Source: Clostridia bacterium (GTDB lineage Bacteria > Bacillota > Clostridia > Oscillospirales > CAG-272). From it: a DNA stretch of 38,697 nt. A model generated the notes under the pieces. The model was not told the DNA's origin, ran no database searches, and saw nothing but the letters and a program-made list of their open reading frames with translations. Position 1 is the stretch's first letter; each line of letters starts with the position of its first letter. This document shows positions 4,079 through 29,490 of the stretch, one piece after another. Where the stretch lies: positions 1 to 38,697 of the forward strand of contig JAFPWV010000025.1 of NCBI GenBank assembly GCA_017412675.1, read 5' to 3'. The position numbers and the translations under genes were made by a program.

Positions 4079-4105
4079 GCCGGAACACCGCAGCCGGAGG
4101 ATACG

Positions 4106-5638
4106 ATGATGAAAGCGTTATCTGAGAAAAGAGCGGTTTCCCTGCTCCTCGCCGCGATCCTGCTCCTCGGCGCCGTGCTTTCGTGCGCGGGTTGTGCGGG
4201 GAGCAGCCAGGAGGGCTCCGATCCCCAGCCGGACGCGACGGCCTCGGATCCGTCTGCTGACATCGGCGCGGCGGAGCCGGAGGAGACCGCGCTTGAACTG
4301 GGCCTTGACGAAAAGACGTTCGGCGGCTATACGTTCCACATCTACCAGCATTATGTGTCGAACGGCTGCCACCTCGATTTCATGGCGGAGGAAGTCACCG
4401 GCGAACCGATCAACGATGCGGATTACGAGCGCCGCACCTATACGGAGGATTTCTGCGATGTCGAGATCGTGCCGATCCGCGTCGATACGGACGCATGGAA
4501 CGGCCACAAGCAGATCGAGATCGCGGTGCAGGCGGGGACGAACGACTACGACCTGGCCGGCGTCTCCTCGTATTCCGCCGCGAACGCGCTGGTGTCCGGC
4601 CTCCTGACGGATTTGAACACCGTCGGGAATCTGGACCTCGACAAGCCGTGGTGGGACGCCTACTGCAAGAAGGAGTGCACCTTCCGGGATTCCGTCTACT
4701 TCATGACGGGGGATCTCTCCATCAACGACAACCGGGCGACCTACTGCATCTACTTCAACAAGAACCTCGCCGAGCAGTATCAGCTGCCCAACTTCTATGA
4801 CGAGGTCAAAAACAAGACATGGACGATCGACCGCTTCCGTTCCTTCGCCGAGGCCATCCCGACGGATCTCGACACGGACCAGGACGGGAACCATGTCAAC
4901 GACACCGACGACACCTACGCGATCTGGATCTGGGACGATATCATGATGGGGATCGTGAATGCCTCCGGCGTGAAGTGCGCCACGATCGAGCCCGACGGCA
5001 ACATGGTCCTGACGCTGAACTGCGAACAGCTCTACAACACGTTCGATAAGTTTGCGGAATACGCCTTTGACAAGGGGATCACCTGCCAGTATCAGCGGTC
5101 CGGTTACGATCAGGAATACGGGCAGATCGGATTCCGGGAGGGCAGAGGGCTCTTCCTGATGTCCTATCTCTACGACGCGACCGCGCTGCGCGATATGGAC
5201 GACGACTTCGGGATCCTGCCGATGATGCTGTACGACGAGGCGCAGGAGCGGTACTGCAACTCCGTCGCGTCCTACCCGTCCAGCTTCTATGTCATCCCGA
5301 TCTGCTCCTTCAGCGAAGACGAATACGCCCGGACCGGGTACATCACGCAGATGCTGGCGTACAAATCCCTTTTGACGATGACGCCCGCCTATTACGAACA
5401 GACCCTGCAGAACAAGGTCTCCCGCGACGAGGAATCCGCCGCCATGCTGGATCTGATCTTCGCCACCCGGAGCTACGACTTCGGCTGGTATTTCGAGGTC
5501 GGCAGCTATACCGGCACGATGATGGACGCGCTCAGAAGCTACAACAAGAACCTGGCGTCGAGCATCAAGGCCTCCGAGAAACTCGCGGGGAAGCTCCTCG
5601 AAAAATGCAGCCAGAAGATCCGTTCGTTCGCGCCGTAA
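4106..5638 (+). CDS. Extracellular solute-binding lipoprotein (SBP 2)
   Basis: A 510-aa paralogue of the preceding gene. The signal peptide ends in a double cysteine region (VLSC/CAGC, C27 or C30), so the lipidated residue is ambiguous. The mature region begins FGGYTFHIYQ, in register with SBP 1, and has a calcium-type acidic loop at residues 256-268 (DTDQDGNHVNDTD). Other shared blocks are the KPWWD segment, YFNKNLAEQY and the late DDDFGILPM motif. There are two adjacent ATGs (4106 and 4109). Both are served by CCGGAGGA, and the second has the more usual spacing. Cotranscription with SBP 1 is inferred from the 27-nt gap and the terminator that follows. Ligand unknown, with no permease gene nearby. 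Confidence 0.87.
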   Translation: MMKALSEKRAVSLLLAAILLLGAVLSCAGCAGSSQEGSDPQPDATASDPSADIGAAEPEETALELGLDEKTFGGYTFHIYQHYVSNGCHLDFMAEEVTGEPINDADYERRTYTEDFCDVEIVPIRVDTDAWNGHKQIEIAVQAGTNDYDLAGVSSYSAANALVSGLLTDLNTVGNLDLDKPWWDAYCKKECTFRDSVYFMTGDLSINDNRATYCIYFNKNLAEQYQLPNFYDEVKNKTWTIDRFRSFAEAIPTDLDTDQDGNHVNDTDDTYAIWIWDDIMMGIVNASGVKCATIEPDGNMVLTLNCEQLYNTFDKFAEYAFDKGITCQYQRSGYDQEYGQIGFREGRGLFLMSYLYDATALRDMDDDFGILPMMLYDEAQERYCNSVASYPSSFYVIPICSFSEDEYARTGYITQMLAYKSLLTMTPAYYEQTLQNKVSRDEESAAMLDLIFATRSYDFGWYFEVGSYTGTMMDALRSYNKNLASSIKASEKLAGKLLEKCSQKIRSFAP

Positions 5639-5750: not shown

Positions 5751-5779
5751 TTGCGCGGTTTCATTGCGTATGGTATAAT
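5751..5779 (+). promoter_or_regulatory. Promoter of zinc-ribbon envelope operon 1
   Basis: TTGCGC (5751-5756), a 17-bp spacer and a perfect TATAAT (5774-5779). It also settles the start of the downstream gene: the in-frame ATG at 5703 lies upstream of this promoter, inside the preceding terminator, so translation must begin at 5835. Confidence 0.8.
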
Positions 5780-5834
5780 ATTCCGTAAGAGAAATGAGAT
5801 ACGCCGAGACGATCAAAAAGATTGCGAGGTTTCC

Positions 5835-6566
5835 ATGAATCAGGAAAAGGCATCCCCCGGCAGACGGGCTCTGAATACGGTTCTGCTGCTGATCAACATC
5901 GCCCTGATCGGCTGGATCGTCGTATCGTGGCGCGGTCAGGTCAAGGTACAGCCCGCAGCGGACGAATCTTCTTTCCTCGGCGCTTATGACGTCGACACGG
6001 CAGCGCTCTCCGATCCGATACCCGCCAACGAGGCAGATCCAAGCCCGGTCCCGGCAGAAGACCCGGGCATCACCTCCGGCGGCAGCGGCATGGACAGCTG
6101 GATCCTGAACGCAGACGGCAGCGGGCAGACGTCCGTTCCCCAGGACGCGGTGCAGAGGCCGTCCTTCGAAGAGCTTGAAAGCTGGAAGCAGACCATCGGC
6201 TACCTCCCGCCCGACGCCCGCGACCTCACGGATTTTGACGACATCACGGGATCCTGGAAGGGCTTCGTCCAGTACGATGCGGCGGAGGAGATGGTGAACG
6301 TCACCGTTTCCGGCTCGGCGTCGTCTCTGACGCTGACTGTGGACTGGTATATGATCCACTATTTCGGCGACGGATCCTGGGAAAACGAAGAGCAGATGGA
6401 GGACACGGCGCTGACCGGCTCGTGGTCGAACGGCGGGATGACCGTGACCGGGGCGGGGGAGATCACCTTCTATGCGTTGTTTGAATCGAACGGACAACAG
6501 GCCGCGTTCGGCGAATGGACCCTGCCCGACGGCTCGGTCGCATTGCTCGGCATGGTCAGACCATAA
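5835..6566 (+). CDS. Membrane-anchored protein with a beta-rich C-terminal domain
   Basis: A 243-aa protein, family not recognised. Residues 12-34 form one transmembrane segment (LNTVLLLINIALIGWIVVSW) without a lipobox, so it is a signal anchor with the rest outside. A Pro/Asp/Ser-rich linker follows to about residue 110. The C-terminal 100 residues have a lipocalin-like pattern of alternating strands: it begins ITGSWKGFV and ends GEWTLPDGSVALLGMV. It is the first gene of the operon, after a consensus promoter, and its stop codon is 14 nt before the giant zinc-ribbon gene, implying cotranscription and a shared job at the envelope. The start at 5835 has GCGAGGT upstream. Confidence 0.72.
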   Translation: MNQEKASPGRRALNTVLLLINIALIGWIVVSWRGQVKVQPAADESSFLGAYDVDTAALSDPIPANEADPSPVPAEDPGITSGGSGMDSWILNADGSGQTSVPQDAVQRPSFEELESWKQTIGYLPPDARDLTDFDDITGSWKGFVQYDAAEEMVNVTVSGSASSLTLTVDWYMIHYFGDGSWENEEQMEDTALTGSWSNGGMTVTGAGEITFYALFESNGQQAAFGEWTLPDGSVALLGMVRP

Positions 6567-6580
6567 GGAAGGAGCGCGAC

Positions 6581-9500
6581 ATGGCAAAATACTGCAATAA
6601 ATGCGGCGCGGCGCTGCGGGATGATGCGCGGTTCTGCGAATCCTGCGGGTCGAAGGTCCCCGAAGCGGCGCCGCCCAGACGCTTTTGTTCCTCCTGCGGG
6701 AAGGAACTGCCCGCCGATGCCGCCTTCTGCCGGTTCTGCGGCGCACAGGTGCAAAACTCTGCCCGCCGATCCTCCCGAAACGATACGCCCGCGGGTCAGA
6801 CCGCCGTGAACCGGCCTGCGCAGACCGCCGTGCCGCCATATCGGGAGCCGGTTCCTCAGACCCAGCCCGCCAAGACGAAGCCGAAGAAGAAGGGCCGCGG
6901 GCTCAGCCTGTTTCTGTCTCTTGCAATCGTGGTCGAGTTCTGCATCGCGGGGTTCAAGTACCCGGGATTTCTCCGCAAGGAAGGCGGATGGATCGAAAAC
7001 GTGATCGAGGGCGTGTCCGGCGGTATATCCGGCGGGGGCGATTCCGACGGGGAAGCGGACGACGCGCTGCCGCTCTACTACACGAAGAAACAGATCGACA
7101 ACGCGCCCGCACAAAGCCTCGGCGTCTCTCAGCGGGAACCGGCGGCAGATTTCGGCCGGGTTAGGGTGGAGATCGACGCCTGGAACCTCGACGAAGAGGA
7201 CGACACGCTGACCATGCGGGAGCTGCCGGAGCTCTCCGAAGGGGAGGAAGGCTGGGCGGTGAAGGCCTACGACTTTTCCCTCGCCTCCGGGCAGCATGAA
7301 TTCGTCACCGACGTCATGATCTCCATCCCACGCACGTACACGGACGTGCTCTCCGGGTGTGTATGGTTCAACGAAGTGAGCGGCGAGTGGGAGGACGTCT
7401 ATTACGAAGTGAGCGAGGACGGGGCGAGCTATCGCGTCTTTGCGGATCATTTCAGCCTCTTCGGCGAGAAAACCTACCGGTTCAGCGCAGACGCGCTTGC
7501 CTTCGTCGAGTTGGACGGTCCCTCCGTCGGTCTGAACGACGGCGTTTTTGTGGAGGTTCGGAAGCCGGACGTAAACCGCATGAACTGGCCGGTGAAGGTC
7601 GATTACGACCGCCTGTGGAATCTGTATCAGAAGAAGACGGAGGAGGATATCCGGAATCTGGGAAATTCTATCCAGGCCGTCATGCAGCACAGCGACGACA
7701 TCGCCGCCTCCAAGGCCGCTTACGATAAGCTCGACAACATACAGGACGTATTCGGGGATGTGAGCGGAGCCGCAGGCGCGCTCGGGCTTCCGAATGACCT
7801 TGCCGAAGGCGTTTTGAACATGACCGAAGAAGCGGACGATCTGATGGGGGATTTCATGGATAACCTTGATATCCTTCTGACGGCGCTCAAGATCTGCGAG
7901 GAGGCTAAACGCGGCAACTACACCTTCGGAGAAGTGCTCAAAGACCTACCCAAGGCGACGATGAATCATATGGACGATATCGCCAACATCGGCGTGAGCA
8001 CCCTCGCGGGCATTTATCTGGCGCCCTGGGCTGCCGCGCTGGTCGGCACGACGATGTGGGTCACCGGGAAGCTGTCCGAAATGGATCTCGGGAACGGCAA
8101 GTACACCGATCCGAAGCTCGAAACAATCCACCAGTATTTCTGCACGCTCCGCACAACGCAAATGGTCTACGGCGACCCGATCACCGACAAATATACGCTG
8201 GAACACTATTTTGATGGCCAGAGAAACAGCAAAAAGAAACAGACAGTCCCCATGCAGAAACCTGCCTCGATGACGGAGGAGGATTTTAAGATCCTGAAGG
8301 AAATCGTCCAAAAGAACCCGCTCAACCGCTCCCTCAAGGGGACGTACAACACCGCGACCGGCTGGTACAGCCACATGACCGCCAAAGACGAAGAAGCGGA
8401 AGTGATCTATTCGAAGGGTTGGGCGGAGGCGTTTGAAGCCATACTGACGATAAGCGCCGACGACGGACCGGAATATCTGAAAACCGTTCTCGACGAGTTT
8501 TACTGGAGTTACGCCTATGCCTTCTGGGGGCTGGATGAGGAGTATATCCTGAATCCGATCTGCAGCCGGTTCTGGTCCACGGCCAAGGAGGGATCGTACA
8601 GAACCATCAAAGAAGTGAACGACGGCAAAGAAGTGAAAGACAAAGACAAAATCCGGTGCACGACGGATTTCGTCAATCTTCTGAAACAGGAAACCAAACC
8701 GATCCTTCTCGGGATCCTCGAGGAGATGAGGCGGGACAGCTGCACAGCCTTGAAGCGGGAAATGGAGAAAAAACTCCTCCCGCTGCTCAACTGCGAACTG
8801 ACCTTCCATGTTGTGGACGAAAACCTGCCCGCCGGCGCGAGCTTCCAAAACTCCATGTACTGTAAGGATTGGACAACCATCAACTCCAATCAGTATTATG
8901 TCAGAAACTATGCGGACAAGGGCTTCGATAAGAAGGAGTTCATCACGCCCATGCGCTTCGACGCGGCGAAAGAGGCGTGCTTCCTCCCGCTACTGCCTTC
9001 CTATAAAGTGACGGAAGAAGCGGGACTTCTCGTCAAAAACTCCGTCAAGAATTACTATCCCTACACGACGGATTTTATCCCCCGGCCGGAGAAGAAAGGC
9101 GACGTGGTGTACCGATGTACCTATTACCACTATCTGATGATGGGTGCGCCGACTGTGATGTTTTTCAAGGACGTGAGAAAAATGAGCGCGGCTGCCGACG
9201 AGCCGGAAATCCCCGGCAAGATCGTGATGCCGGAGCTGACTAAATCCGCAACCAGAACCATCAAGGAACCCTATACCGGGGAAAAGCGCCGGATCACCGA
9301 ACAGATCCCGATAAGAAAGGCCGACGTTCAGGTGATCGTCCCCCGGAGCGTGGGGACAGTTTTCAAGTTCTTCGATCTGAACCATTACTACTTCGACAGC
9401 GGCAGCGACGCCGCGACGATGATGCTCGTCTATCTCGAGGAAGCGCTCAAAACCATGGAAATCACCCTCGCGGCGGACGGGAGCTTCTCCGTGACCGGAA

Positions 9501-9952
9501 GCACGCTCTATGAGAACAACACGCCCCGGCACGACATCAACGACTCGATATTCCCGGAGGTGGAAGTCCTGTACGGGGAGGATGTATTCGATCCTGTCTG
9601 GGAAGAGTCCGGCATCTATGACAGTCTCCATGCGGATCTGAACGGGAAAGTTGATCTGAAATCGGGCACCGGCTCCGCTTCACTAACCGCGAACCTTTCC
9701 GGTTCTTCGTATTACCGGATGGGAGACACGAAAGGCAAGGTGGAGTCCTCGAGCACCTCCACGAGCGCCTCGCTCGAAGGCGTGACGCCGTACGTCACAG
9801 TCACAGATTCCGGAAGGGAGCTCACCATCCGGTTCGTGAGCAGCGGGGAGGATCGGCTCTCCTTCTCCTATACCACCACGCATTCCTCCTCCCCGGCCGA
9901 TTCCGGGAAGGAAGACTGGGACCTGACGATCGTTTATCGATCCGTCAAATAA
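6581..9952 (+). CDS. Giant zinc-ribbon / transmembrane / ectodomain protein A
   Basis: A 1123-aa protein. Two short zinc ribbons lie at the N-terminus (C5-C8/C19-C22 and C36-C39/C50-C53), followed by a basic Pro/Lys linker and a transmembrane helix at about 106-125 (LSLFLSLAIVVEFCIAGF). The helix is capped by PGF, and about 990 residues are predicted outside. The proximal ectodomain is beta-rich and ends in DHFSLF (H290). The middle is helical, with a Gly/Ala-rich hydrophobic segment at about 471-497. The end is again beta-rich and Ser/Thr-heavy. The start at 6581 has AAGGAAGGAG and begins directly with the ribbon. The layout matches the minus-strand protein at 26467-29490, including the post-TM PGF and the HFSL motif. 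Function unknown; envelope sensing or structure is an inference. Confidence 0.85.
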   Translation: MAKYCNKCGAALRDDARFCESCGSKVPEAAPPRRFCSSCGKELPADAAFCRFCGAQVQNSARRSSRNDTPAGQTAVNRPAQTAVPPYREPVPQTQPAKTKPKKKGRGLSLFLSLAIVVEFCIAGFKYPGFLRKEGGWIENVIEGVSGGISGGGDSDGEADDALPLYYTKKQIDNAPAQSLGVSQREPAADFGRVRVEIDAWNLDEEDDTLTMRELPELSEGEEGWAVKAYDFSLASGQHEFVTDVMISIPRTYTDVLSGCVWFNEVSGEWEDVYYEVSEDGASYRVFADHFSLFGEKTYRFSADALAFVELDGPSVGLNDGVFVEVRKPDVNRMNWPVKVDYDRLWNLYQKKTEEDIRNLGNSIQAVMQHSDDIAASKAAYDKLDNIQDVFGDVSGAAGALGLPNDLAEGVLNMTEEADDLMGDFMDNLDILLTALKICEEAKRGNYTFGEVLKDLPKATMNHMDDIANIGVSTLAGIYLAPWAAALVGTTMWVTGKLSEMDLGNGKYTDPKLETIHQYFCTLRTTQMVYGDPITDKYTLEHYFDGQRNSKKKQTVPMQKPASMTEEDFKILKEIVQKNPLNRSLKGTYNTATGWYSHMTAKDEEAEVIYSKGWAEAFEAILTISADDGPEYLKTVLDEFYWSYAYAFWGLDEEYILNPICSRFWSTAKEGSYRTIKEVNDGKEVKDKDKIRCTTDFVNLLKQETKPILLGILEEMRRDSCTALKREMEKKLLPLLNCELTFHVVDENLPAGASFQNSMYCKDWTTINSNQYYVRNYADKGFDKKEFITPMRFDAAKEACFLPLLPSYKVTEEAGLLVKNSVKNYYPYTTDFIPRPEKKGDVVYRCTYYHYLMMGAPTVMFFKDVRKMSAAADEPEIPGKIVMPELTKSATRTIKEPYTGEKRRITEQIPIRKADVQVIVPRSVGTVFKFFDLNHYYFDSGSDAATMMLVYLEEALKTMEITLAADGSFSVTGSTLYENNTPRHDINDSIFPEVEVLYGEDVFDPVWEESGIYDSLHADLNGKVDLKSGTGSASLTANLSGSSYYRMGDTKGKVESSSTSTSASLEGVTPYVTVTDSGRELTIRFVSSGEDRLSFSYTTTHSSSPADSGKEDWDLTIVYRSVK

Positions 9953-10005
9953 CCGAACCGAAAAAATCCCACCGTCAATCATATCAAAGAAAGCGAGGAA
10001 ACATC

Positions 10006-10626
10006 ATGCAGACAAAACCCATCGAAAAAACGGGCAAGAAATTCCACTGGCAGTATGAAATGAGCCTCTTCAAGAACCCGACGATCTTTCTGGCCACGGC
10101 CAAGGCGATCCTCATCGCGCTCGCCATCACCGTCTTTATCATCGGCCTGATCACCCTGATCGGGGACGAGTTCTCGGCGGACGCCTTCGCGTTCATCGGC
10201 AAGCTCATCCTCATCCTCTTCGGCATCTTCGCCGTCCTGCTCTGCCTCGGCTACCTGCTCTACGCTGCGATCATGGGCGGGATCTACAGCGTGGACTTCG
10301 AGATGGATGAGAACGTGTTCGTCCACACCCAGAACCCGAGACAGGCAAAGAAGGCGGAGAAGATCGGCACCGCCACGATGATCATGGGCGCGATCACGCA
10401 TACCCGGGGCGCCGTCAGCGCAGGGTACAATTCGGCGGTCCGCATGTCGTCGACGACGGAATTTGCCCGCGTGAAGAAGGTCGTCGTCGACCGGAAGCAC
10501 AGCGTCATCAAGCTCAGAGAGATCGGCTGGAACGAGGCTTATGCCGACGGGGACGACTTCGACTTCGTCGCGGACTGGATCCGGAACCACATCCCGGAGA
10601 CGGCGGAATGGGTGGTGAAGGAATGA
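10006..10626 (+). CDS. Two-TM membrane protein with PH-like C-terminal region
   Basis: A 206-aa integral membrane protein, no named family recognised. A charged N-terminal 30 residues are followed by two hydrophobic helices at about 33-55 and 63-90 (the second rich in Ile/Leu/Phe). The C-terminal 110 residues are soluble, with alternating strands and a closing helix (VADWIRNHI), similar in layout to small bacterial PH-like domains that follow paired TM helices. GCGAGGAA precedes the start. It lies 53 nt after protein A, and its stop overlaps the next start by 4 nt (ATGA), so it belongs to the same transcription unit. A role beside protein A in the membrane is inferred from position only. Confidence 0.75.
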   Translation: MQTKPIEKTGKKFHWQYEMSLFKNPTIFLATAKAILIALAITVFIIGLITLIGDEFSADAFAFIGKLILILFGIFAVLLCLGYLLYAAIMGGIYSVDFEMDENVFVHTQNPRQAKKAEKIGTATMIMGAITHTRGAVSAGYNSAVRMSSTTEFARVKKVVVDRKHSVIKLREIGWNEAYADGDDFDFVADWIRNHIPETAEWVVKE

Positions 10627-11117
10627 AAACCGGATTTTTGAAAAGAGGACTGCTGATTCTTTTGACATTGCTGCTTTGCACCGGCTGCGGTCTCTTCGGC
10701 GGGGGAGGAGAGAACTTCCCCTACGAGCCGGACACCCCCGCGCCTGCGCCGCACGACGGCGTCTTCGTCTCGGAGCACGGCTCGATGCGGTTTGACGGGG
10801 ACGGCAAGCACATCACCGTCGATTTCGACGAAGAGCTGGCGGAATGGTGCGCCCTGCCCGCGGGAGAGCAGGAGGGGACGTATGTCTTTCTGAGCGGGAA
10901 TCTGCCGCCGCACGGCTCCATGCCCGTCCGCTACGACGTGGCGCACGAGCTGGAGATCACCGTCGGCGAGCAGACCGTCGTCATCCAGCTCGGGATCGCG
11001 GCGGAGGACGGCAGGACCGCCTCGTCCGGCATGGGCATCGTGACGCCGGAGCGGATCCCGCTGCTGTTCTCCGGCGAGCTCCTCTTCTCCGTCGAATTCT
11101 TAAAGGACGGGGAATGA
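10623..11117 (+). CDS. Small lipoprotein of zinc-ribbon operon 1
   Basis: A 164-aa secreted lipoprotein. The N-terminus is a classic signal (KR, then LLILLTLLL) ending CTGC, with C22 the likely lipidated residue, followed by a Gly-rich and Pro-rich spacer. The mature part is about 120 residues of predicted beta strands with a lipocalin-like feel: it begins GVFVSEHGSMRFDGDG and ends with strands LLFSGELLFSVEF. The start at 10623 overlaps the previous stop (ATGA) and has GGTGAAGGA upstream. An ATG 15 nt further upstream is in frame but would spoil the signal peptide. No known family was recognised. Translational coupling suggests it works with the adjacent two-TM protein. Confidence 0.75.
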   Translation: MKTGFLKRGLLILLTLLLCTGCGLFGGGGENFPYEPDTPAPAPHDGVFVSEHGSMRFDGDGKHITVDFDEELAEWCALPAGEQEGTYVFLSGNLPPHGSMPVRYDVAHELEITVGEQTVVIQLGIAAEDGRTASSGMGIVTPERIPLLFSGELLFSVEFLKDGE

Positions 11118-11164
11118 GCGGCGCGTCCGGCGAAGAAATCGGATCACGGAAGGAGAGGAACCAC

Positions 11165-11680
11165 ATGTTTTGTCCGGAATGCGGAAAGGAGCTGCGGAGC
11201 GGAGCGCGCTTCTGCGCATGGTGCGGCGCTGTGACGACGGGTGAGCCTGCCGTCCTGGAAACGCGATTCTGCCCGGCCTGCGGCGCGGAGATCAAGGATG
11301 GCTACGCGTTCTGCGAGAAATGCGGCGAGCCGGTCGGGCGGGACGGGGAGGTGCCCAAGCGGGCGGATCTCACGCGGGTCCCCACGATGACGATTGCGGC
11401 GAACCTCGCCGTCGAGCGGAATCCGACGGGGGAATGGAGCTACTGGGACACCCCGGATGTGTTCACCACAGGCGCGAAGAGGCTGCTGCGCTTCTCTGAA
11501 AAGGAAGACCGGAGGCTGGCTTCCGATCCGGAGGGGGCGTATGTTTACCTCGTCTCACCCGGCGGCGCGATCGGGCACATCTTCACGGATGACGGGGGCG
11601 AGCGGGTCCTGGAGTGGGTCTACTTCACCGAAACGGACCGGCCGGACACCCTCCCGATGACCGCCGCGGAATGCGAATGA
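11165..11680 (+). CDS. Small double zinc-ribbon protein
   Basis: A 171-aa protein that opens with two zinc ribbons of the CxxC-x10-CxxC type (CPECGKELRSGARFCAWCG, then CPACG..FCEKCG) and continues with about 110 residues containing GEWSYWDTPDVF and several aromatic strands. No transmembrane helix is seen, so it is cytoplasmic unless held by partners. The start at 11165 is preferred because GGAAGGAGAGG lies just upstream and the ribbon begins at residue 2. An alternative ATG at 11114 overlaps the previous stop. It is the last gene of the operon and shares the ribbon type with proteins A and B and with the small membrane protein at 25237-25647. Function unknown. Confidence 0.8.
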   Translation: MFCPECGKELRSGARFCAWCGAVTTGEPAVLETRFCPACGAEIKDGYAFCEKCGEPVGRDGEVPKRADLTRVPTMTIAANLAVERNPTGEWSYWDTPDVFTTGAKRLLRFSEKEDRRLASDPEGAYVYLVSPGGAIGHIFTDDGGERVLEWVYFTETDRPDTLPMTAAECE

Positions 11681-11714
11681 CCGCTTCCCGTCCTGCGCGG
11701 GAACAAACATAAAG

Positions 11715-11764
11715 GGCTGCCGCAGGATCCCCTCGAGACGGAGAGAGGCGGCAGCCGGTTTTTA
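11715..11764 (+). terminator. Strong intrinsic terminator of zinc-ribbon operon 1
   Basis: GGCTGCCGC (11715-11723) pairs perfectly with GCGGCAGCC (11748-11756), followed by GGTTTTTAT. It closes the five-gene unit. The stem sequence recurs in the terminator near 32540. Confidence 0.88.
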
Positions 11765-11844: not shown

Positions 11845-13254
11845 ATGCTGTTTTCATCCCTGGTATTTCTGTTCCTGTTCCTGCCCGTCTTTTTCCTGTC
11901 GTATCACGCGGCGAAGAAGCGGCGGACGCGCAACGCGCTTTTGTTTTTGTTCTCCCTCTTGTTCTATGCGTGGGGGGAGCCGGTCTATGTCCTTTTGATG
12001 CTCCTCGCCCTCGGCGTCAACTACGCGCTGGCGCTTCTGATCGAGGCGTGCGGGGCGGGAAAACGCCGGACCGCTCTGATCGGTGCCTGCTGCTTCGATC
12101 TTCTCCTCATCGGCATCTTCAAATACGCCGGCTTCTTCGTGCGGGCGGTGAACCTCCTCCCAGGTCTCGATCTCCCCGTCCCGGCGCTGCCCCTGCCGCT
12201 CGGGATCAGCTTCTATACCTTCCAGATCCTCTCCTACGTCGTCGACGTGTACCGGGGGGACGTGAAGGCGCAGCGGGATCCCGTCACACTCGGCGCGTAT
12301 CTCTGCGCGTTCCCGCAGCTGATCGCAGGACCGATCGTGCGCTACCGGGACATCGAGGCGGCGCTCACGGACCGGAGGGAGACCCCCGAGGACACGGCGG
12401 CCGGGATGCGGCGCTTCATCGCGGGGCTCGCCAAGAAGGTCCTCATCGCCAACGTCATGGCTGAGACGGTGGACGCGCTCTGGGCGTCGGACCCGTCCGG
12501 GTACGGGATGGCGGGGGCTTGGATCGCGGCGCTTGCGTATGCCGTGGAGATCTATTTCGACTTCTCCGGCTATTCCGACATGGCGATCGGGCTCGGCCGC
12601 ATGATGGGCTTCCGCTACGCCGAGAACTTCCGCTATCCATACGCCGCGCGCTCGGTCACGGATTTCTGGCGGCGGTGGCACATTTCGCTCTCCTCCTTCT
12701 TCCGCGATTACGTCTACATCCCCCTCGGCGGGAACCGGGTCTCCCGGGCAAAATGGGTGAAGAACATCGCTGTCGTCTGGCTCCTGACGGGGCTATGGCA
12801 CGGCGCCGGGTGGAATTTCGTGCTGTGGGGCGCGTATTACGGGCTCCTTCTGATCCTCGAAAAGCTGGTCTGGCCCGGCCTTGAGAAGATCCCCGTGCTG
12901 AACCGGCTCTACACGCTCTGCGCGGTGCTCTTCGGATGGGTGCTGTTCCGCGCCGACGGCGTGACGGGAGCGGGCGCGATGTTTGCCGCGCTCTTCGGTG
13001 CCCACGGTGTCGCGGGGACCGGGGGACGGCTCCCGATCCTTTTGCAGGGCGCGGGCTTCGACCTCGTCTTCCTCCTCGCGTTTGCCGCCGGATGCGTCCT
13101 GTCCGCGCCGGTGTGGCCCGCCGTGAAGGACCGGCTCGAATCGACAAGGTCGGGCCGACTCATCCGGGACGCCGCAGCCCTCGGCACGCTCACCGCCTGT
13201 ATCCTCGCGCTCGCGGTCGGTTCCTACAACCCGTTCATCTATTTCCAGTTCTGA
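11845..13254 (+). CDS. MBOAT-family membrane O-acyltransferase (AlgI/PatA/DltB-like)
   Basis: A 469-aa polytopic protein that moves an acyl group, usually acetyl, across the membrane for attachment to an envelope polymer. The family signatures are clear: an opening MLFSSLVFLFLFLPVFF, the central LPLGISFYTFQILSYVVDVY, FPQLIAGPIVRY, YFDFSGYSDMAIGLGRMMGF, FWRRWHISLSSFFRDYVYIPLGGN and the catalytic TGLWHGAGWNF with H319. Length is normal for AlgI-like proteins. The ribosome binding site is weak (GTGAGAGAACG). The DHHW-family gene starts 13 nt downstream, as in alginate- and exopolysaccharide-acetylation pairs. The acceptor polymer is not identifiable here, and the acetyl assignment follows the family. 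No separate promoter was recognised in the 80 nt after the preceding terminator. Confidence 0.93.
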   Translation: MLFSSLVFLFLFLPVFFLSYHAAKKRRTRNALLFLFSLLFYAWGEPVYVLLMLLALGVNYALALLIEACGAGKRRTALIGACCFDLLLIGIFKYAGFFVRAVNLLPGLDLPVPALPLPLGISFYTFQILSYVVDVYRGDVKAQRDPVTLGAYLCAFPQLIAGPIVRYRDIEAALTDRRETPEDTAAGMRRFIAGLAKKVLIANVMAETVDALWASDPSGYGMAGAWIAALAYAVEIYFDFSGYSDMAIGLGRMMGFRYAENFRYPYAARSVTDFWRRWHISLSSFFRDYVYIPLGGNRVSRAKWVKNIAVVWLLTGLWHGAGWNFVLWGAYYGLLLILEKLVWPGLEKIPVLNRLYTLCAVLFGWVLFRADGVTGAGAMFAALFGAHGVAGTGGRLPILLQGAGFDLVFLLAFAAGCVLSAPVWPAVKDRLESTRSGRLIRDAAALGTLTACILALAVGSYNPFIYFQF

Positions 13255-13267
13255 GAGGAGGGGAGAC

Positions 13268-14680
13268 ATGAAACCGAAAGTGTTCGTCGGCGCCGTGAGC
13301 GTCCTCGTGCTCTTTTTCGCGGTCTTCTGTCCCGTGCTGCGGCTGGCGGAGACCCTCGGCTGGGTCGAACTCCCTCAGATGGGCAATCTCCGCGAACCGG
13401 CGAAGGAATGGGGCGTCCCGTTCCTCGATGCCGCAGAGCGGTTCAAGGCCGGCGCGGAGGACGTGTATGTCAATGACCTGCCCGGCTACGCGCACGTCGT
13501 CACGGCGATGTCGACAGCCCGGGTCGATTTCAGCCGCTCCTTCAACGCGCTCTTGACAGCGGGCGTGAAGACCGGAGCTGCCCCGACTGCCGCGGAACCT
13601 GACGTGACGGGATCCGCGGAAACGGAGCCTGCCGGGACGTCGGAATCGTTCGAATCGCCTCCCGCCCAGACGGAGCCGGAGGAGCCCGCGCCGGAAGAGC
13701 CCGTCCCCGAGGAGCCCGCCGTCGTGTCGTGGAAATCCCGGTTCCTCAAAGCGTCCGGGGACGGTGTGAACCTCTACGCAGTGGACGCGGTGCTCTCCGA
13801 CGGCGAAACGGTCGGCCTCATCACCTCCGCGTTCAGCACGCCCGAGCGGGTCTATACGAAGCGCATGGAGACGACGGCGGAGCAGATCAACGCGATCGCC
13901 GCCCTCGCGCCGGACGTGAAGCCGTGGGTGTACGTCTGCTCGCGCCTGCAGGACGCCGCGTGCTTTTCGGAGATCATCCCGGGCGAGCCGTCCACCGGTC
14001 CGCTCGTGGAGAAGTTCTTCAGCCTCCTCGACGAGGGGATCCGGTACGACCGGCTGAAGATCGACTCCCTCGACGACAGCATCAAAAAGCTCTTCCTCAC
14101 CGACCACCATTGGAACGCCTACGGGATGTACGAGGCCTACTGCGACATCGTGACCATGATGTTCGGGGAGGACGCGGTGATCCGTCCGCTCGGCGTGCGG
14201 TACGACGTGGAAGGCGCGGACTACTACGGCACCTTCGCGCGGACCAGCGGGTACCGGGGCTATCACGACAGCTTTTTCTTCTACGACTACGGCCTGCCGG
14301 AGCATGAGCTGATCGCGGACAAGCCCTGCGTCTTCGCGGAGCGCAAGGAGACCTATCTCGCGGGGAAGTTCTCGAAGGATATCTCGGCGGACCACTATGT
14401 CCTGTTCTACCCCTACGCGCGGTATCTGAAATACCCGGAGAACCACACCGGGCGCGTCCTGCTCCTGCTCGGGGACAGCTATTCCCGCGGCATCTCGGAG
14501 CTGCTCTCCAGCGCGTTCGACGAGGCGTACATCTTCGACTACCGCCGAATCCGTGAGATCGGGGACTACCGGGCCTTCGTCGAAGAACACGGGATCACGG
14601 ACGTCCTCTTCATGCAGTACTCCCTGCGCGGCGTGTTCAACAATCAGAACGACAACACGCTCGACACCCTCTTGCCGTGA
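13268..14680 (+). CDS. DHHW/SGNH-like O-acetyltransferase partner of MBOAT
   Basis: A 470-aa protein with an N-terminal signal anchor (residues 4-22), an extracytoplasmic domain and a long Pro/Glu/Thr/Ser-rich insertion at about residues 100-155 (repeated EEP units). The catalytic signature DHHW is at 279-282 (LTDHHWNAYG) and a GDSYS block with S404 is near the end, as in AlgX/AlgJ-like SGNH acyltransferases. By family precedent it takes the acyl group from the MBOAT partner and puts it on the exported polymer. It starts after GAGAGGAGGGG, 13 nt behind the MBOAT gene. The low-complexity insertion is longer than in typical members and probably spans part of the wall. Confidence 0.88.
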   Translation: MKPKVFVGAVSVLVLFFAVFCPVLRLAETLGWVELPQMGNLREPAKEWGVPFLDAAERFKAGAEDVYVNDLPGYAHVVTAMSTARVDFSRSFNALLTAGVKTGAAPTAAEPDVTGSAETEPAGTSESFESPPAQTEPEEPAPEEPVPEEPAVVSWKSRFLKASGDGVNLYAVDAVLSDGETVGLITSAFSTPERVYTKRMETTAEQINAIAALAPDVKPWVYVCSRLQDAACFSEIIPGEPSTGPLVEKFFSLLDEGIRYDRLKIDSLDDSIKKLFLTDHHWNAYGMYEAYCDIVTMMFGEDAVIRPLGVRYDVEGADYYGTFARTSGYRGYHDSFFFYDYGLPEHELIADKPCVFAERKETYLAGKFSKDISADHYVLFYPYARYLKYPENHTGRVLLLLGDSYSRGISELLSSAFDEAYIFDYRRIREIGDYRAFVEEHGITDVLFMQYSLRGVFNNQNDNTLDTLLP

Positions 14681-25236: not shown

Positions 25237-25647
25237 TTATCTCGAACCGAGAGCTCCCTGCAGGCTCCCCAACAGGTTTCCTCCGAGGATCGACACGAGG
25301 ACGCCGAGGATCACGCTGATGAGCACCCAGATCAGGACGGAGCGGGCGTAGTGCTTGCGGTTGACGTTGGTGTTTTTCGAGAAGGCCCATACGAGGAGCA
25401 CGATCAGGCCAACGATCGGGATGGCGACGATGACGGGCATCCAGAAAAAGCTGGCGGTGGACAGCGGTGCGGTCAGGGGATCATAAGCGGACGGCACCGG
25501 TGCGGAGGCGCGTGTCGGCGGAACCGTCGGCGGCTGCCGGAGAGGGGCGTTTTGTCCCAGCGGCTGTTCCGACGTCAGCTTCTGTCCGCATTCAGGGCAG
25601 AAAACGCTGCCGTCCGGGATTCTCGAGGCGCATTTGTTGCAGAACAT
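25237..25647 (-). CDS. Small zinc-ribbon membrane protein
   Basis: A 136-aa protein. One zinc ribbon opens it (CNKCASRIPDGSVFCPECG). A Pro/Ala/Thr-rich linker follows to about residue 65. Then come two transmembrane helices at about 69-88 (WMPVIVAIPIVGLIVLLVWAF) and 102-125 (SVLIWVLISVILGVLVSILG), ending in a short Gly-rich tail. The start at 25647 has GGAGGAT upstream. The longer open frame upstream lacks family character. It is the last gene of the minus-strand unit headed by giant protein B, 44 nt after the Lgt-like gene. Such ribbon-plus-TM proteins are common in clostridia, but their function is unknown. It parallels the small zinc-ribbon gene that ends operon 1. Confidence 0.82.
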   Translation of the reverse strand: MFCNKCASRIPDGSVFCPECGQKLTSEQPLGQNAPLRQPPTVPPTRASAPVPSAYDPLTAPLSTASFFWMPVIVAIPIVGLIVLLVWAFSKNTNVNRKHYARSVLIWVLISVILGVLVSILGGNLLGSLQGALGSR

Positions 25648-25691
25648 GACAGATCCTCCATGATATGATTTGCGAAAATGACGGTATCCGT

Positions 25692-26465
25692 TCAGCGGGA
25701 CCTCCGTTCCCGGCGAATCTGCCGGATCAGCAGAGCGGCGCAGGCGGCCAGCAGGATCGGATAGAGCAGGGGATAGAAGACCTTCGCCGGCATGGAATAG
25801 ACGGCTGCGCGCAGGGAATAAAGGGCGAATCGGACGGCGCACACCCAGCCGGCATACGCGAGGAACGGTACGCCCTCCGGCCATTTTTTCTTTTTCCGGA
25901 GAAGCAGAAGGACGATGATGCCCGCGAGATACGCGACGCACTCGAAAAGCTGGACCGGCCACACCCGGCGCGCTTCGGGCGGCGTGTTCAGAAGATCGTA
26001 GACGACCTCGTGGGCGGGAAACACCATCCCGAGGCGGCTTGCCGTCTGACTGCCCGCGCAGCAGCCGTTCAGAAAGCATCCGACTTTCAAAACGGTCAGC
26101 GCGATCCCCGTCCCCGCGGTCAGGTCGTCGGAAACGCGGAAAAACGGCAGATCCAGCTCGCGGCAAACGGCATACAGGACCAGCGTGCCGAGGATCAGTC
26201 CGCCCATGAGCGAGAGGCGGTCGTACCGCAGACTCCACACGGGATAATTCTCCCCGTAGCGGCCCGGATTCAGCGCGGCATGCAGAAGCCTCGCGCCGAA
26301 CAGAGCGGACAGGATGACCGCCGGAGGCAGCAGGATCCGCATCCGGGAGGGAATGTCCCGCTTCATGGCGCACGCGGACAGCGACCAGAACAGGACCCCG
26401 GCCGCCGCGGCCATCAGGAGATACGAGGAGAGCGAGCGGCCGAACAGGTGAAGGACGGGCAGCAT
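25692..26465 (-). CDS. Lgt-like (prolipoprotein diacylglyceryl transferase family) membrane protein, atypical
   Basis: A 257-aa polytopic protein with about seven hydrophobic segments and the layout of prolipoprotein diacylglyceryl transferases: GARL at 57-60, a GGLILG block at 88-93 and the core KVGCFLNGCCAG at 127-138. True Lgt has a catalytic His just before GGL (HGGL) and Arg in RxGNFxN. Here these are M87 and K127, and a C-rich loop (C130, C135, C136) replaces the usual residues. It therefore belongs to the Lgt-like 'GCFxNGCC' branch and may not make lipoproteins. Its start lies 1 nt from the stop of giant protein B, so translation is coupled. The housekeeping Lgt for the lipoproteins here is probably elsewhere. 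Confidence 0.82.
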   Translation of the reverse strand: MLPVLHLFGRSLSSYLLMAAAAGVLFWSLSACAMKRDIPSRMRILLPPAVILSALFGARLLHAALNPGRYGENYPVWSLRYDRLSLMGGLILGTLVLYAVCRELDLPFFRVSDDLTAGTGIALTVLKVGCFLNGCCAGSQTASRLGMVFPAHEVVYDLLNTPPEARRVWPVQLFECVAYLAGIIVLLLLRKKKKWPEGVPFLAYAGWVCAVRFALYSLRAAVYSMPAKVFYPLLYPILLAACAALLIRQIRRERRSR

Positions 26466-26466
26466 G

Positions 26467-29400
26467 TCAGGACTTCTTTTCCACGCTGATGTCGATGATC
26501 AGGTACATCTGCGCGTGGGATACCTTATCGAAATTGATGATGACGCCCGTTCCGGTCAGACGGGTCGGACGGCCCTGTTCCTGGATGACGGAGATCGCGG
26601 TGGTCCCGTTGTCGTTCTTGATGACCAGCTTTCCTCCGGTGAACTCCGCGTCCACGGGGGCGTCGATGGTTTTGGTCACCCCGTCCTCCGTTTCGGTCAC
26701 ATGGAAGGTGAGGGTGTATTTGCTCCCGTCGCCCGAGCCCTTGCCGATCAGTCCTCCGAGTCCGCCGGAGAGGAGACTGCCGGCTTTCCGGATCGTCACG
26801 CCCGTGAGATACACGCCCTCGTTCAGGGAGACGGCGTCGTCGCAGTCACCGCGCTTCAGGCCGAACTGCTCGCCCCAGATCTTGTACCACAGATCGCCGA
26901 GATAGACGCCGGTCGGCGTGATGGTTCCCTCGTATTCGCCTTCGATGTCGTCCAGCGCGCCGAAGATGACCTCCACGCCACCGTTCGCAAACTCGAAGGA
27001 CGCCTCCGCCGCGGATTCGTTGTATTTCAGCGCCTTTTCATCCTTGAAGAGGCGGATCCAGTTGAGCGATTGTTTGTTCTTCTCCCCCGCCTTGATCCAG
27101 TTGTAGGCGGTGCACTGGAACTGTACCTTGTCCGAGCCGATCTGGAAGATCCAGTCGTCGACCGTGCCGTACGCGGCGTTCATCGGCGTGGCTTCCTTTC
27201 CCGTGCAGAAGGCGGCGATATATCCCTTGTACTGCGATTCGCCGAGCGGCACCTTCTTCGGCTTCCCGTTTTCCTGCGTCTCCGTCACATAGAACGAGAA
27301 GCTCGTGACCGTGTTCATCGCGTCCGTCAGCTCCTGGATGGTCTTCTCCGTATTGGTCAAGGCCTCCGCTTTGTAGCGATTGTAGTAATAGTCGATGTTT
27401 TTGGTGTTCATCATCGCCAGGACCTGCTTCATCTGGGTCTTGTAGGTCCCGATGGTGCTGGAATCCGGGTCCCGGTAATCAGACACCTTGACGTCCTTGG
27501 CAAACTCCTCCCGGAACCCGCGCGGGAGACGCCAGAAGACATCGGCCGCGTTTTCAAAACAGGTGTCGATGCCCTTTGCGAGCTGCGCGGTATCTTTGGA
27601 AGGGTAATACGCATATTTGTCGAGATAATTCCCCCACCGGTTCACCGACTTCGTCTCGGAACAGCTTCCCAGCGTTTTGCAGTCTTTGTAGATGTATTTT
27701 GTTTTTGAGTTGTTATTCGTGTTGAACAGATAGTCCCTTGATTTCTCCATTGCCTCCGGCATATCGGTGCAGATCAGCCCTCCCGGCCACTTTCCGCTTC
27801 CCGCCGCCGTCTCGGAGTAGGCGACGTAATTCTTGGTGAACGTCATGTACACCTTTTGGATGTCGTTGTCGTAGTGCCCGTTGCGGAGGCGGGTGATGTG
27901 GCTTTCGTCGTAATTCTCGTAGGTGGAGCCGATCGCCGTCGCCGCCCAGAGTCCTCCCGCAACGACACCGGCGACCACATTGAACGGAGGAGGTGCGGCC
28001 AGGGAGATCCCGCCCAGCGCGAGCAGATAAACGTCCGTGGAGTTTTCCTTGAAGGCGCTCGTAAAGCTGCCCTTGTCATACCAGGTCACGCAGAACTTGA
28101 CGCCGGTCAGCACGACGCCCACGGCGAAGAACTTTTTGGCGAGCGCTTCGGAGGTTCCCGCGGCGATCTTGCCCATCGAGGAGAGGATCTGCTGGATGTT
28201 GTCCGTCGCGGTGGCGCCGTTCCCGACAAATCCGAGCGCGACGGCCGATTTTCCCGCGACTGTCGGGTCATCCTGCCAGTTGTTCTCCTGCTTTGCAATG
28301 GTTTTCAGGGTGTCGAACTGCGTGGTGATGTTCTTCGAGATCTCTGCGAGCCGGTTGGAGTTGAACGTGACCCGCGTGAGCGCGCCCTTGCCCTCCTGAA
28401 TGTCCGCCTGGTTGTACAGGAAGGGCTCGTCGTTGTTCCATTCGGCCATCTTCCCGCCGATATAGAACCCGACGGTCGCTCCCGCGGTGCCCAGGAGAGG
28501 AGGGGAAACCGCCGCGCCGACCGCTGCGCCTTTTCCTGCGCCTTCGAGGTCAAAGCCCGTGCCGTCCTCCTTGTACTCCTCATACACGGGAGGCAGACTG
28601 AGCGTCCCGTCCGAGATCTGCCCGTCCAGCTGTTCCTTCATGAAGATGCGGGATTCGCTGGTGTCGTAAATGCTGTCGAGGGAGAAATGATTCACCCAGA
28701 AGGTGATCGTCTTTGCGTCCGTGTCGAATTCGGCGGGGAGCACGGTCCAGGTTTTCGTCTTGTCGTCATAGTGCCGGGCGGTGACGGTGTCCAGCGGATC
28801 GTCGTTGTCCGGGTTGTAGGGCATGGTGACGGCGACGTAGCCTTCGGGCTGGGTCTTGCCCCCGTCGAGCCGCAGATCGATCACGCGCACATCGGCGTCT
28901 TCCGCATGGTCCTTCCGCATGCCGATGTCCCGGATCTCCAGCGTGTGTTCGCCCTCCAGCACGCCGAGATCGACCGTGATGTCCCCCGCCTCGGCGACGG
29001 TCTCGTCCTCACCGACGGTAAAGATGGCGGGCTCGATCGCGTTGACTTCCTTTTTGGTGACCACGAGGGAATCCGTGTTGTATGCCACCGCCGGATCCGC
29101 GGGCTTGAAGATGCCGATCCGGCCGATCCACGGCAGCATGAAGCCCGGCTTCCAGAGCCCCGTCACGAGGATGGCGGCGACGAGGATGAGGGAGACGGCA
29201 CGGATGAAGCCGGAGGATCGCTTCTTCTGGGCGGGCTGCTTTTTCCGGGATGTATCGGCTCGGACCTGCGCGATGGGCTGAGCGGCCGTTCGTGAAGGCG
29301 CCGCCTGCATCGGATATCCGCATTTGTTGCAGAATTTGGCGCCGTCGGGCGGGACCGCGCCGCAGATCGGGCAGGTTTTGACGATGTTCCGGGCGACGGC

Positions 29401-29490
29401 GGGTTCTCCGTTTCCCGAGAGCGCACCTCCGCAGAACCGGCAGAATTTCGTGCCGGGCTCAACCTCTTTTCCGCAATGACGGCAGTACAT
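26467..29490 (-). CDS. Giant zinc-ribbon / transmembrane / ectodomain protein B
   Basis: A 1007-aa counterpart of protein A. There are two zinc ribbons (C3-C6/C17-C20 and C40-C43/C54-C57), a basic linker (SRKKQPAQKKR), one TM helix at 94-113 and a PGF motif just outside it. A beta-rich proximal ectodomain ends in NHFSLDS (H268). The middle contains two Gly/Ala-rich hydrophobic stretches at about 315-345 and 487-522, then a helical region. The C-terminal 200 residues are beta-rich with TGVYLGDLWYKIWGEQFG. No catalytic motif was recognised. The start at 29490 has AGGAGA and a consensus promoter upstream. It heads an operon with the Lgt-like and small zinc-ribbon membrane genes. The hydrophobic stretches outside the main TM could insert in a membrane. 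Confidence 0.86.
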   Translation of the reverse strand: MYCRHCGKEVEPGTKFCRFCGGALSGNGEPAVARNIVKTCPICGAVPPDGAKFCNKCGYPMQAAPSRTAAQPIAQVRADTSRKKQPAQKKRSSGFIRAVSLILVAAILVTGLWKPGFMLPWIGRIGIFKPADPAVAYNTDSLVVTKKEVNAIEPAIFTVGEDETVAEAGDITVDLGVLEGEHTLEIRDIGMRKDHAEDADVRVIDLRLDGGKTQPEGYVAVTMPYNPDNDDPLDTVTARHYDDKTKTWTVLPAEFDTDAKTITFWVNHFSLDSIYDTSESRIFMKEQLDGQISDGTLSLPPVYEEYKEDGTGFDLEGAGKGAAVGAAVSPPLLGTAGATVGFYIGGKMAEWNNDEPFLYNQADIQEGKGALTRVTFNSNRLAEISKNITTQFDTLKTIAKQENNWQDDPTVAGKSAVALGFVGNGATATDNIQQILSSMGKIAAGTSEALAKKFFAVGVVLTGVKFCVTWYDKGSFTSAFKENSTDVYLLALGGISLAAPPPFNVVAGVVAGGLWAATAIGSTYENYDESHITRLRNGHYDNDIQKVYMTFTKNYVAYSETAAGSGKWPGGLICTDMPEAMEKSRDYLFNTNNNSKTKYIYKDCKTLGSCSETKSVNRWGNYLDKYAYYPSKDTAQLAKGIDTCFENAADVFWRLPRGFREEFAKDVKVSDYRDPDSSTIGTYKTQMKQVLAMMNTKNIDYYYNRYKAEALTNTEKTIQELTDAMNTVTSFSFYVTETQENGKPKKVPLGESQYKGYIAAFCTGKEATPMNAAYGTVDDWIFQIGSDKVQFQCTAYNWIKAGEKNKQSLNWIRLFKDEKALKYNESAAEASFEFANGGVEVIFGALDDIEGEYEGTITPTGVYLGDLWYKIWGEQFGLKRGDCDDAVSLNEGVYLTGVTIRKAGSLLSGGLGGLIGKGSGDGSKYTLTFHVTETEDGVTKTIDAPVDAEFTGGKLVIKNDNGTTAISVIQEQGRPTRLTGTGVIINFDKVSHAQMYLIIDISVEKKS

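What the first reader, a model, noticed from the sequence alone, without database searches (positions are those of the whole stretch)
5751..11764. Candidate undescribed envelope system: zinc-ribbon/TM/giant-ectodomain operon
Five coupled genes between a consensus promoter and a strong terminator encode a TM-anchored beta-rich protein, a 1123-aa protein with two cytoplasmic zinc ribbons, one TM and about 990 outside residues, a two-TM/PH-like protein, a lipoprotein and a small zinc-ribbon protein. None has a recognised enzyme motif. Zinc ribbons inside joined by one helix to a huge outer domain, with dedicated membrane and lipoprotein partners, suggest a transmembrane sensing or scaffold complex. 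The layout is seen; the role is inferred.
Basis: partly seen in the sequence, partly recalled or inferred. Interest (0 to 1): 0.75.

Follow-up and report, generated by a model that had tools for sequence, protein, structure and literature searches.

The report
Zinc-ribbon surface protein gene cluster
A set of neighbouring genes, in a bacterium whose nearest named relatives come from ruminant guts, encodes an undescribed large envelope protein that joins zinc ribbons and a membrane helix to a big outer part and carries, just outside the membrane, the sequence mark of proteins that cut themselves in two.

Summary
The five genes are real (A 5835-6566, B 6581-9952, C 10006-10626, D 10623-11117, E 11165-11680). 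No family beyond the zinc-ribbon regions passes a cut-off in Pfam or NCBIfam. B belongs to a multi-copy family: five copies in this genome plus a fragment, relatives in other families and classes. The conserved core is the pair A-B: in 291 genomes of the class, each of the four genomes with a strong A besides the own one has a B-type gene beside it. E-like proteins lie near some of these clusters; C also occurs alone.

Behind B's membrane helix lies a module ending in H290-F291-S292. A profile cut off before that motif still led to it: 58 of 67 hits have H at the expected place, 57 of these with S/T two residues on. This is the H-[FL]-[ST] signature of ZU5/GPS/Nup98 self-cleaving domains. Lipid-anchored and secreted forms without zinc ribbons exist, which argues against a general sensor role. 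Best reading: self-cleavage at F291|S292 and display of a sheddable ~832-residue part. Fold and cleavage are untested; structure prediction was off.

The parts
5751..5779 (+). Promoter-like site: TTGCGC, 17 nt, extended -10 TGGTATAAT
   Evidence: Read; below the threshold of the scan (first hexamer 3 of 6).
5835..6566 (+). Gene A: 243 aa, one N-terminal membrane helix, linker, C-terminal domain taken as beta-rich (invariant G, WK, W, R in the family)
   Evidence: no Pfam/NCBIfam family.
6581..9952 (+). Gene B: 1123 aa; zinc ribbons, TM, ZU5/GPS-like module, hydrophobic segment, conserved core, variable C-terminal part
6590..6751 (+). B: two zinc ribbons (aa 4-57)
   Evidence: Pfam Zn_Ribbon_1 and DZR above cut-off.
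6899..6955 (+). B: membrane helix aa 107-125, lysines before it
   Evidence: Hydropathy; aa 101-130 have the highest mean identity of the regions compared (0.45).
7118..7468 (+). B: ZU5/GPS-like module aa 180-296
   Evidence: Conserved in family and wider set; Pfam ZU5, GPS and Nup98 autopeptidase only below cut-off, each in 1 of 30 wider sequences and none in B itself.
7448..7456 (+). B: codons of H290-F291-S292, predicted self-cleavage site F291|S292
7988..8044 (+). B: second hydrophobic segment aa 470-488
   Evidence: A second segment is present in 16 of 16 aligned members.
8261..8875 (+). B: conserved core aa 561-765, probably helical (invariant N737)
   Evidence: Profile of aa 500-760 also finds lipoprotein and secreted versions; no PDB or Pfam relative.
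10006..10626 (+). Gene C: 206 aa, two membrane helices plus soluble C-terminal domain; found also alone in other genomes
10623..11117 (+). Gene D: 164 aa putative lipoprotein
11165..11680 (+). Gene E: 171 aa, double zinc ribbon plus small domain shared with proteins near distant clusters
11715..11763 (+). Rho-independent terminator-like hairpin with T run
26467..29490 (-). Second B-type gene in the window (1007 aa; zinc ribbons, TM, module with HFS at aa 268-270)
25692..26465 (-). Lgt-type gene directly behind the second B-type gene
   Evidence: Pfam LGT 1.4e-24; same arrangement in L043, L045, L047, L119.

Best explanation
B is an envelope protein with zinc ribbons that should lie in the cytoplasm (ribbons shown by sequence, side inferred from the charges), one membrane helix (hydropathy) and, just outside the membrane, a module of the ZU5/GPS kind (inferred). 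The module folds and cuts its own chain between F291 and S292, by attack of the serine hydroxyl on the preceding peptide bond with H290 assisting (inferred from the H-[FL]-[ST] motif and its joint retention and loss). The two pieces would stay together through the module, so that a 291-residue anchor displays an ~832-residue outer fragment that can later be pulled off or exchanged (inferred). The outer fragment has a conserved core and a variable distal part, which fits recognition of a partner or surface (inferred). A, encoded directly before B, is its standing partner in the membrane (adjacency shown, contact inferred; short A forms keep little more than the helix). C, D and E are accessories that come and go by lineage. 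The zinc-ribbon/TM anchor is one of three anchoring solutions, the others being a lipid anchor and plain secretion.
For: Motif in the wider set: in 71 non-redundant module sequences (of 116 rows covering the site) H is 70 of 71, F/L 69 of 71, S/T/C 71 of 71. Motif-blind control: of 67 non-identical hits of a profile ending four residues before the H, 58 have H within four residues of the expected place, 57 of these with S/T at +2; 9 lack H and 4 of 9 keep S/T (Fisher p 7e-5, not corrected for relatedness); 4 of 2689 background windows hold such a motif. Among 30 module sequences the Pfam scan lists ZU5 (0.088), Nup98-96 autopeptidase (0.13) and GPS (0.13), one member each, all below cut-off, among 15 weak families. 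PMC3482391 (passages) groups ZU5, GPS and Nup98 as one autoproteolytic superfamily and reports it in large bacterial surface proteins; PMC3776922 (passages) gives the HL|(S/T) consensus. Conserved base, variable rest: mean identity over 16 members 0.42 for ribbons, 0.45 for TM, 0.39 for the module, against 0.19-0.21 beyond. A-B adjacency. Other anchors.
Against: No Pfam ZU5 match in the own genome, none above cut-off in 291 class genomes, no autopeptidase family in B itself and no PDB sequence relative. The fold could not be predicted and there are no cleavage data. The motif could be kept for packing alone. PMC3482391 describes the active site as a CxH motif, which I did not see in B (H290 is preceded by A-D). 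PMC3776922 reports that LAT-1 activity does not need GPS cleavage. The motif-blind control is not fully independent: its profile was built from motif-bearing proteins, and some hits are those same proteins (G505, G342, own genome). Distances of A and B are uncorrelated over 14 adjacent pairs (r 0.16, p 0.13) and over 6 pairs of one genus (r 0.00, p 0.52). Nine of 67 wider hits lack the H.
Confidence: 0.45

Rival explanations
1. Non-cleaving stalk: the module is an ordinary beta domain whose H-F-S is kept for packing; B is a membrane-anchored adhesin or scaffold and A a structural partner.
For: Module-type sequences, mostly its second half, occur in proteins of very diverse length in 67 of 299 phylum genomes; no Pfam autopeptidase family passes its cut-off.
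Against: H and the S/T two residues on tend to be kept or lost together (57 of 58 against 4 of 9), and the middle position is F or L in most, as in known self-cleaving motifs.
Confidence: 0.3
2. Transmembrane sensor: ligand or tension on the outer part (with or without self-cleavage) changes the zinc ribbons inside, as in adhesion GPCRs or RsgI-type anti-sigma factors.
For: Zinc ribbons and TM are, with the module, the best conserved parts of B; several clusters of other families contain a gene for a LuxR-type membrane regulator (the one scanned: GerE 1.9e-18, MFS_1 2.3e-5 below its cut-off).
Against: Relatives with the same module and core lack ribbons and TM and are lipoproteins (L114-L118) or secreted (L137, L138); no regulator or sigma factor gene was recognised among the window genes scanned.
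Confidence: 0.13
3. TcaA-like cell-wall factor: zinc ribbons inside, one TM, outer domains acting on wall polymers.
For: Same layout as S. aureus TcaA (PMC10328498, passage); downstream neighbours are an MBOAT gene and a weakly DHHW-like gene, a pair that I recall from polysaccharide acetylation.
Against: NCBIfam TcaA scores 11.7 bits against a cut-off of 550, over aa 35-85 only; neighbours differ at the other loci.
Confidence: 0.07
4. Releasable antagonistic effector: self-cleavage frees the outer part, whose hydrophobic segments insert into a rival's membrane.
For: Second hydrophobic segment in 16 of 16 members; a colicin A chain is listed at E 0.19 for that region; ZU5 occurs in polymorphic toxins (PMC3482391, passages).
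Against: The colicin match is not significant; no toxin or immunity family passes a cut-off and PADLOC is empty; no hit in plasmids or phages.
Confidence: 0.05

Closest known systems
ZU5/GPS/Nup98 autoproteolytic superfamily (PIDD, adhesion GPCRs, polycystin-1; bacterial surface proteins in PMC3482391)
   Same: Module ending in H-[FL]-[ST]; located near the membrane in a large outer part.
   Different: No significant sequence match to any of the three Pfam models; no CxH motif seen; fold and cleavage untested; anchored by zinc ribbons and a TM, with partner gene A.
TcaA of Staphylococcus aureus
   Same: Zinc finger inside, one membrane helix, most of the protein outside.
   Different: Outer part not matched by the NCBIfam model (11.7 of 550 bits, aa 35-85 only); I know of no H-F-S module in TcaA (recalled, not tested); operon differs.
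RsgI / SEAL-domain anti-sigma factors
   Same: Envelope proteins with a self-cleaving domain and transmembrane signalling (only titles in a reference list and one abstract start seen; the papers themselves were not held).
   Different: No RsgI or sigma-factor domain in B; the recalled cleavage motif differs (Asn-Pro); zinc ribbons instead of an anti-sigma domain.

Membership tests
ZU5 (Pfam PF00791) | Match to the Pfam profile above its cut-off | tested here: not met
   0 matches in own genome; 0 of 291 class genomes above cut-off; 1 of 30 wider module sequences at E 0.088.
ZU5/GPS/Nup98 superfamily | H-[FL]-[ST] at the end of the module | tested here: met
ZU5/GPS/Nup98 superfamily | CxH motif named by PMC3482391 | tested here: not met
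   B reads VFADHFS at the site: no C two residues before H290. In the 71 wider sequences position -2 is T, V, M, A, L or S, never C.
ZU5/GPS/Nup98 superfamily | Beta-sandwich fold with the motif at a turn between neighbouring strands | not testable with these tools
ZU5/GPS/Nup98 superfamily | Actual self-cleavage | not testable with these tools
   Needs protein chemistry.
TcaA | Zinc ribbon, TM, outer part in this order | tested here: met
   layout of TcaA from a passage of PMC10328498.
TcaA | Full-length match to the TcaA equivalog model | tested here: not met
   11.7 bits against 550.
RsgI/SEAL anti-sigma factors | Cytoplasmic anti-sigma domain and partner sigma factor gene | tested here: not met
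   No such Pfam domain in B or in the four neighbours scanned.

The most novel reading that the evidence does not exclude
A bacterial counterpart of adhesion-GPCR architecture: a family of two-piece surface proteins that self-cleave at a ZU5/GPS-like module next to the membrane, with zinc ribbons inside, a dedicated membrane partner (A), a variable sheddable outer part, and natural versions in which the zinc-ribbon/TM anchor is exchanged for a lipid anchor or lost.
Probability: 0.33. Interest if true: 0.75.

Novelty: new variant of a known kind. Interest (0 to 1): 0.55.

Why it matters
If B cleaves itself, this would be a bacterial surface-display-and-release device with the cleavage signature of adhesion GPCRs and PIDD, and its natural anchor swaps would let anchoring, display and release be studied apart. 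Even without cleavage, A-B is a conserved gene pair without a recognised family, with a ready list of relatives for experiments.

Tried and rejected
Tried without result: structure prediction of B and A; PDB sequence profiles for the module, B, A, C and the core (nothing usable outside the zinc ribbons); Pfam on A, C and core members (nothing convincing beyond zinc ribbons); PADLOC (none); PHROGs (matches over zinc-ribbon regions, plus weak ones to C at 0.039 and D at 0.057); plasmids, phages and viral contigs (none). Co-divergence of A and B was tested and not found. Given up: one fixed five-gene system (C occurs alone); pseudogene status of the short A genes (five similar forms, four of which keep the C-terminal VRP). 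Matches of the module to an antibody chain (E 1.1) and of B to colicin A (E 0.19) are taken as chance. Papers: the listings show none that I could recognise as describing this cluster (searches returned none at all); of five papers only passages were seen (PMC3482391, PMC10328498, PMC10611510, PMC12203970, PMC3776922). Subscription journals are mostly not held. D and E were compared only with loci already fetched, not searched for in whole genomes.
Full report
OBSERVATION. The genes are as described, with small corrections: A 5835-6566 (243 aa), B 6581-9952 (1123 aa), C 10006-10626 (206 aa), D 10623-11117 (164 aa), E 11165-11680 (171 aa). The -10 element is perfect and extended, the -35 weak. 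A terminator-like hairpin (-24.2 kcal/mol, z -1.84, 7 of 200 shuffles as good) ends the unit. In Pfam only zinc-ribbon models pass their cut-offs, in B and E; in NCBIfam only a 4-Cys domain model over B's first ribbon does; PADLOC is empty; PHROGs gives zinc-ribbon matches and two weak ones.

A FAMILY, NOT A SINGLETON. The own genome holds paralogues of B at C94 (two genes), C144 (cut by the contig end) and at 26467-29490 (-) in this window, and a C-terminal fragment at the end of C183. Of 40 genomes searched as relatives, 8 matched the ectodomain profile: the own one and seven congeners, none of the 15 genomes from other families. The named-genome scan gave 15 loci, labelled Clostridia, Oscillospiraceae, Lachnospiraceae, Ruminococcus and Solobacterium; where the title names a source it is rumen, reticulum or duodenum of ruminants, or red deer.

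GENE ORDER. Mechanical gene maps show A-B-C-D-E (window), A-B-C-D (L041), short A-B-C-D (L009 +), C-A-B (L009 -, L040), A-B-C (L065), A-B (L010, L044, L060, L062), B-C (L066); L043, L045, L046, L047, L061 and L064 have B-type genes without A. Of 38 B or module genes, two have no gene upstream on the contig; of the other 36, 18 have A or short A directly upstream on the same strand, 14 of the 18 with a gap of 12-18 nt (the others 6, 29, 61 and 243 nt; the -52 printed for the window comes from an upstream start codon, the gap from the start used here is 14). In 291 class genomes A reaches E <= 0.001 in nine: own, four others with E < 1e-40, and four weak ones over other parts of the profile. Each of the four strong ones has a module gene beside it. 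A further pair lies in G505, outside the class. Module genes without A are common: 39 of 291 class genomes have a module match, 9 an A match. C reaches E <= 0.001 in 12 of 291; it is strong (E < 1e-40) in the own genome and in G293, G233 and G128, where no strong A or B was found. E's small domain recurs in L114, L115 and L117, one or two genes from B-type genes; a protein related to the L114 one (24% identity, BLASTP 4e-12, ribbon included) lies beside C-A-B in L040, but E itself did not find it. A and B distances are not correlated: the pair is kept as neighbours but has been reassorted.

THE MODULE. Between the membrane helix and aa 296, B carries a domain that is conserved in its relatives and occurs, mostly as its second half, in 67 of 299 genomes across the phylum. 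In 71 non-redundant sequences (116 rows covered the site before redundancy was removed) its end reads H (70), F or L (69), S, T or C (71). Since that profile contained the motif, I made a control: alignment A16 stops four residues before the H. It hit 54 of 249 genomes at E <= 0.01. I read the site in 29 loci of that call and 40 fetched stretches; other listed places were not fetched. After removing identical and partial ones, 67 hits remained: 58 have H within four residues of the expected place, and 57 of these have S or T two residues on (HFS 20, HFT 15, HLT 10, HLS 7, HWS 3, HHT 1, HCS 1; the exception is HLA). Nine lack the H, and four of the nine keep S or T. Fisher p is 7e-5, not corrected for shared ancestry, and the profile was trained on motif-bearing proteins, some of which are among the hits.

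READING. HL|(S/T) is the GPS cleavage consensus (passage in PMC3776922); HF|S for PIDD ZU5 and Nup98 is from recall. PMC3482391 (passages only) unites these three as one superfamily and reports it in bacterial toxins and other large surface proteins, where it would cut at the base; it names a CxH motif as the active site, which is absent here. The Pfam tests of membership fail. I therefore say that B works like that superfamily, not that it is a proven member.

ANCHORS AND OUTER PART. Seven module proteins without zinc ribbons start with lipoprotein signal peptides (L114 3346-5493, L115 7176-9281, two in L116, L117, L118, L139), and L137 and L138, of one genus, with a plain signal peptide. In L114 and L115 a lipoprotein form and a zinc-ribbon form flank one A gene. 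The core profile (aa 500-760) matches 12 proteins outside the close family: six of these lipoproteins, L137, and five others (L051, L114, L115, L119, L136); the C-terminal profile (aa 860-1123) matches none of the proteins tested. All 16 aligned members have a second hydrophobic segment in the supposed ectodomain, as do three of the six lipoproteins checked, so the simple one-TM topology is not secure.

VERDICT. An undescribed, conserved A-B envelope gene pair with lineage-dependent accessories. The most likely mechanism is display, and perhaps release, of a large outer fragment after self-cleavage at F291|S292. Shown: genes, family, adjacency, motif and its joint retention or loss, anchor swaps. 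Inferred: fold, cleavage, retention, shedding, contact of A with B, recognition by the distal part.

Noticed in passing
window 25237-29490 (-): A second B-type gene is followed directly by an Lgt-type gene (prolipoprotein diacylglyceryl transferase, Pfam E 1.4e-24) and a zinc-ribbon/two-helix gene. B-type plus Lgt recurs in L043, L045, L047 and, in another family, L119.
   Followed up: partly
L009 12402-12683, L042 2-244 and 5038-5316, L048 2502-2843, L068 1279-1515: Short forms of A before B keep the membrane helix and, in four of five, the C-terminal ...VRP, but lack the C-terminal domain.
   Followed up: partly
L114, L115, L116, L118, L120, L121: Clusters in other families contain, ahead of the module genes, a membrane protein of 469-491 aa; the one scanned (L116) has a C-terminal LuxR-type DNA-binding domain and a sub-threshold MFS match.
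   Followed up: partly
L126 5718-6917, L129 3936-5054, L128 2207-5737, L142 1-1932: In other proteins an H-F-S site lies some 24-36 residues before a C-terminal hydrophobic segment, the mirror image of B.
   Followed up: no
window 11845-14680: Downstream neighbours are an MBOAT acyltransferase (2.8e-30) and a weakly DHHW-like protein (0.085, below cut-off), a pair that I recall from polysaccharide O-acetylation.
   Followed up: no
window 2567-5638: Two putative lipoproteins lie upstream; the second weakly resembles solute-binding proteins (SBP_bac_1, 2.4e-4, below cut-off).
   Followed up: no
L009 16906-17802 and L041 3988-4485: D of L009 is longer; its first half matches the window's D, and its second half appears to match the D of L041, so D may be a two-domain protein that was split.
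   Followed up: no
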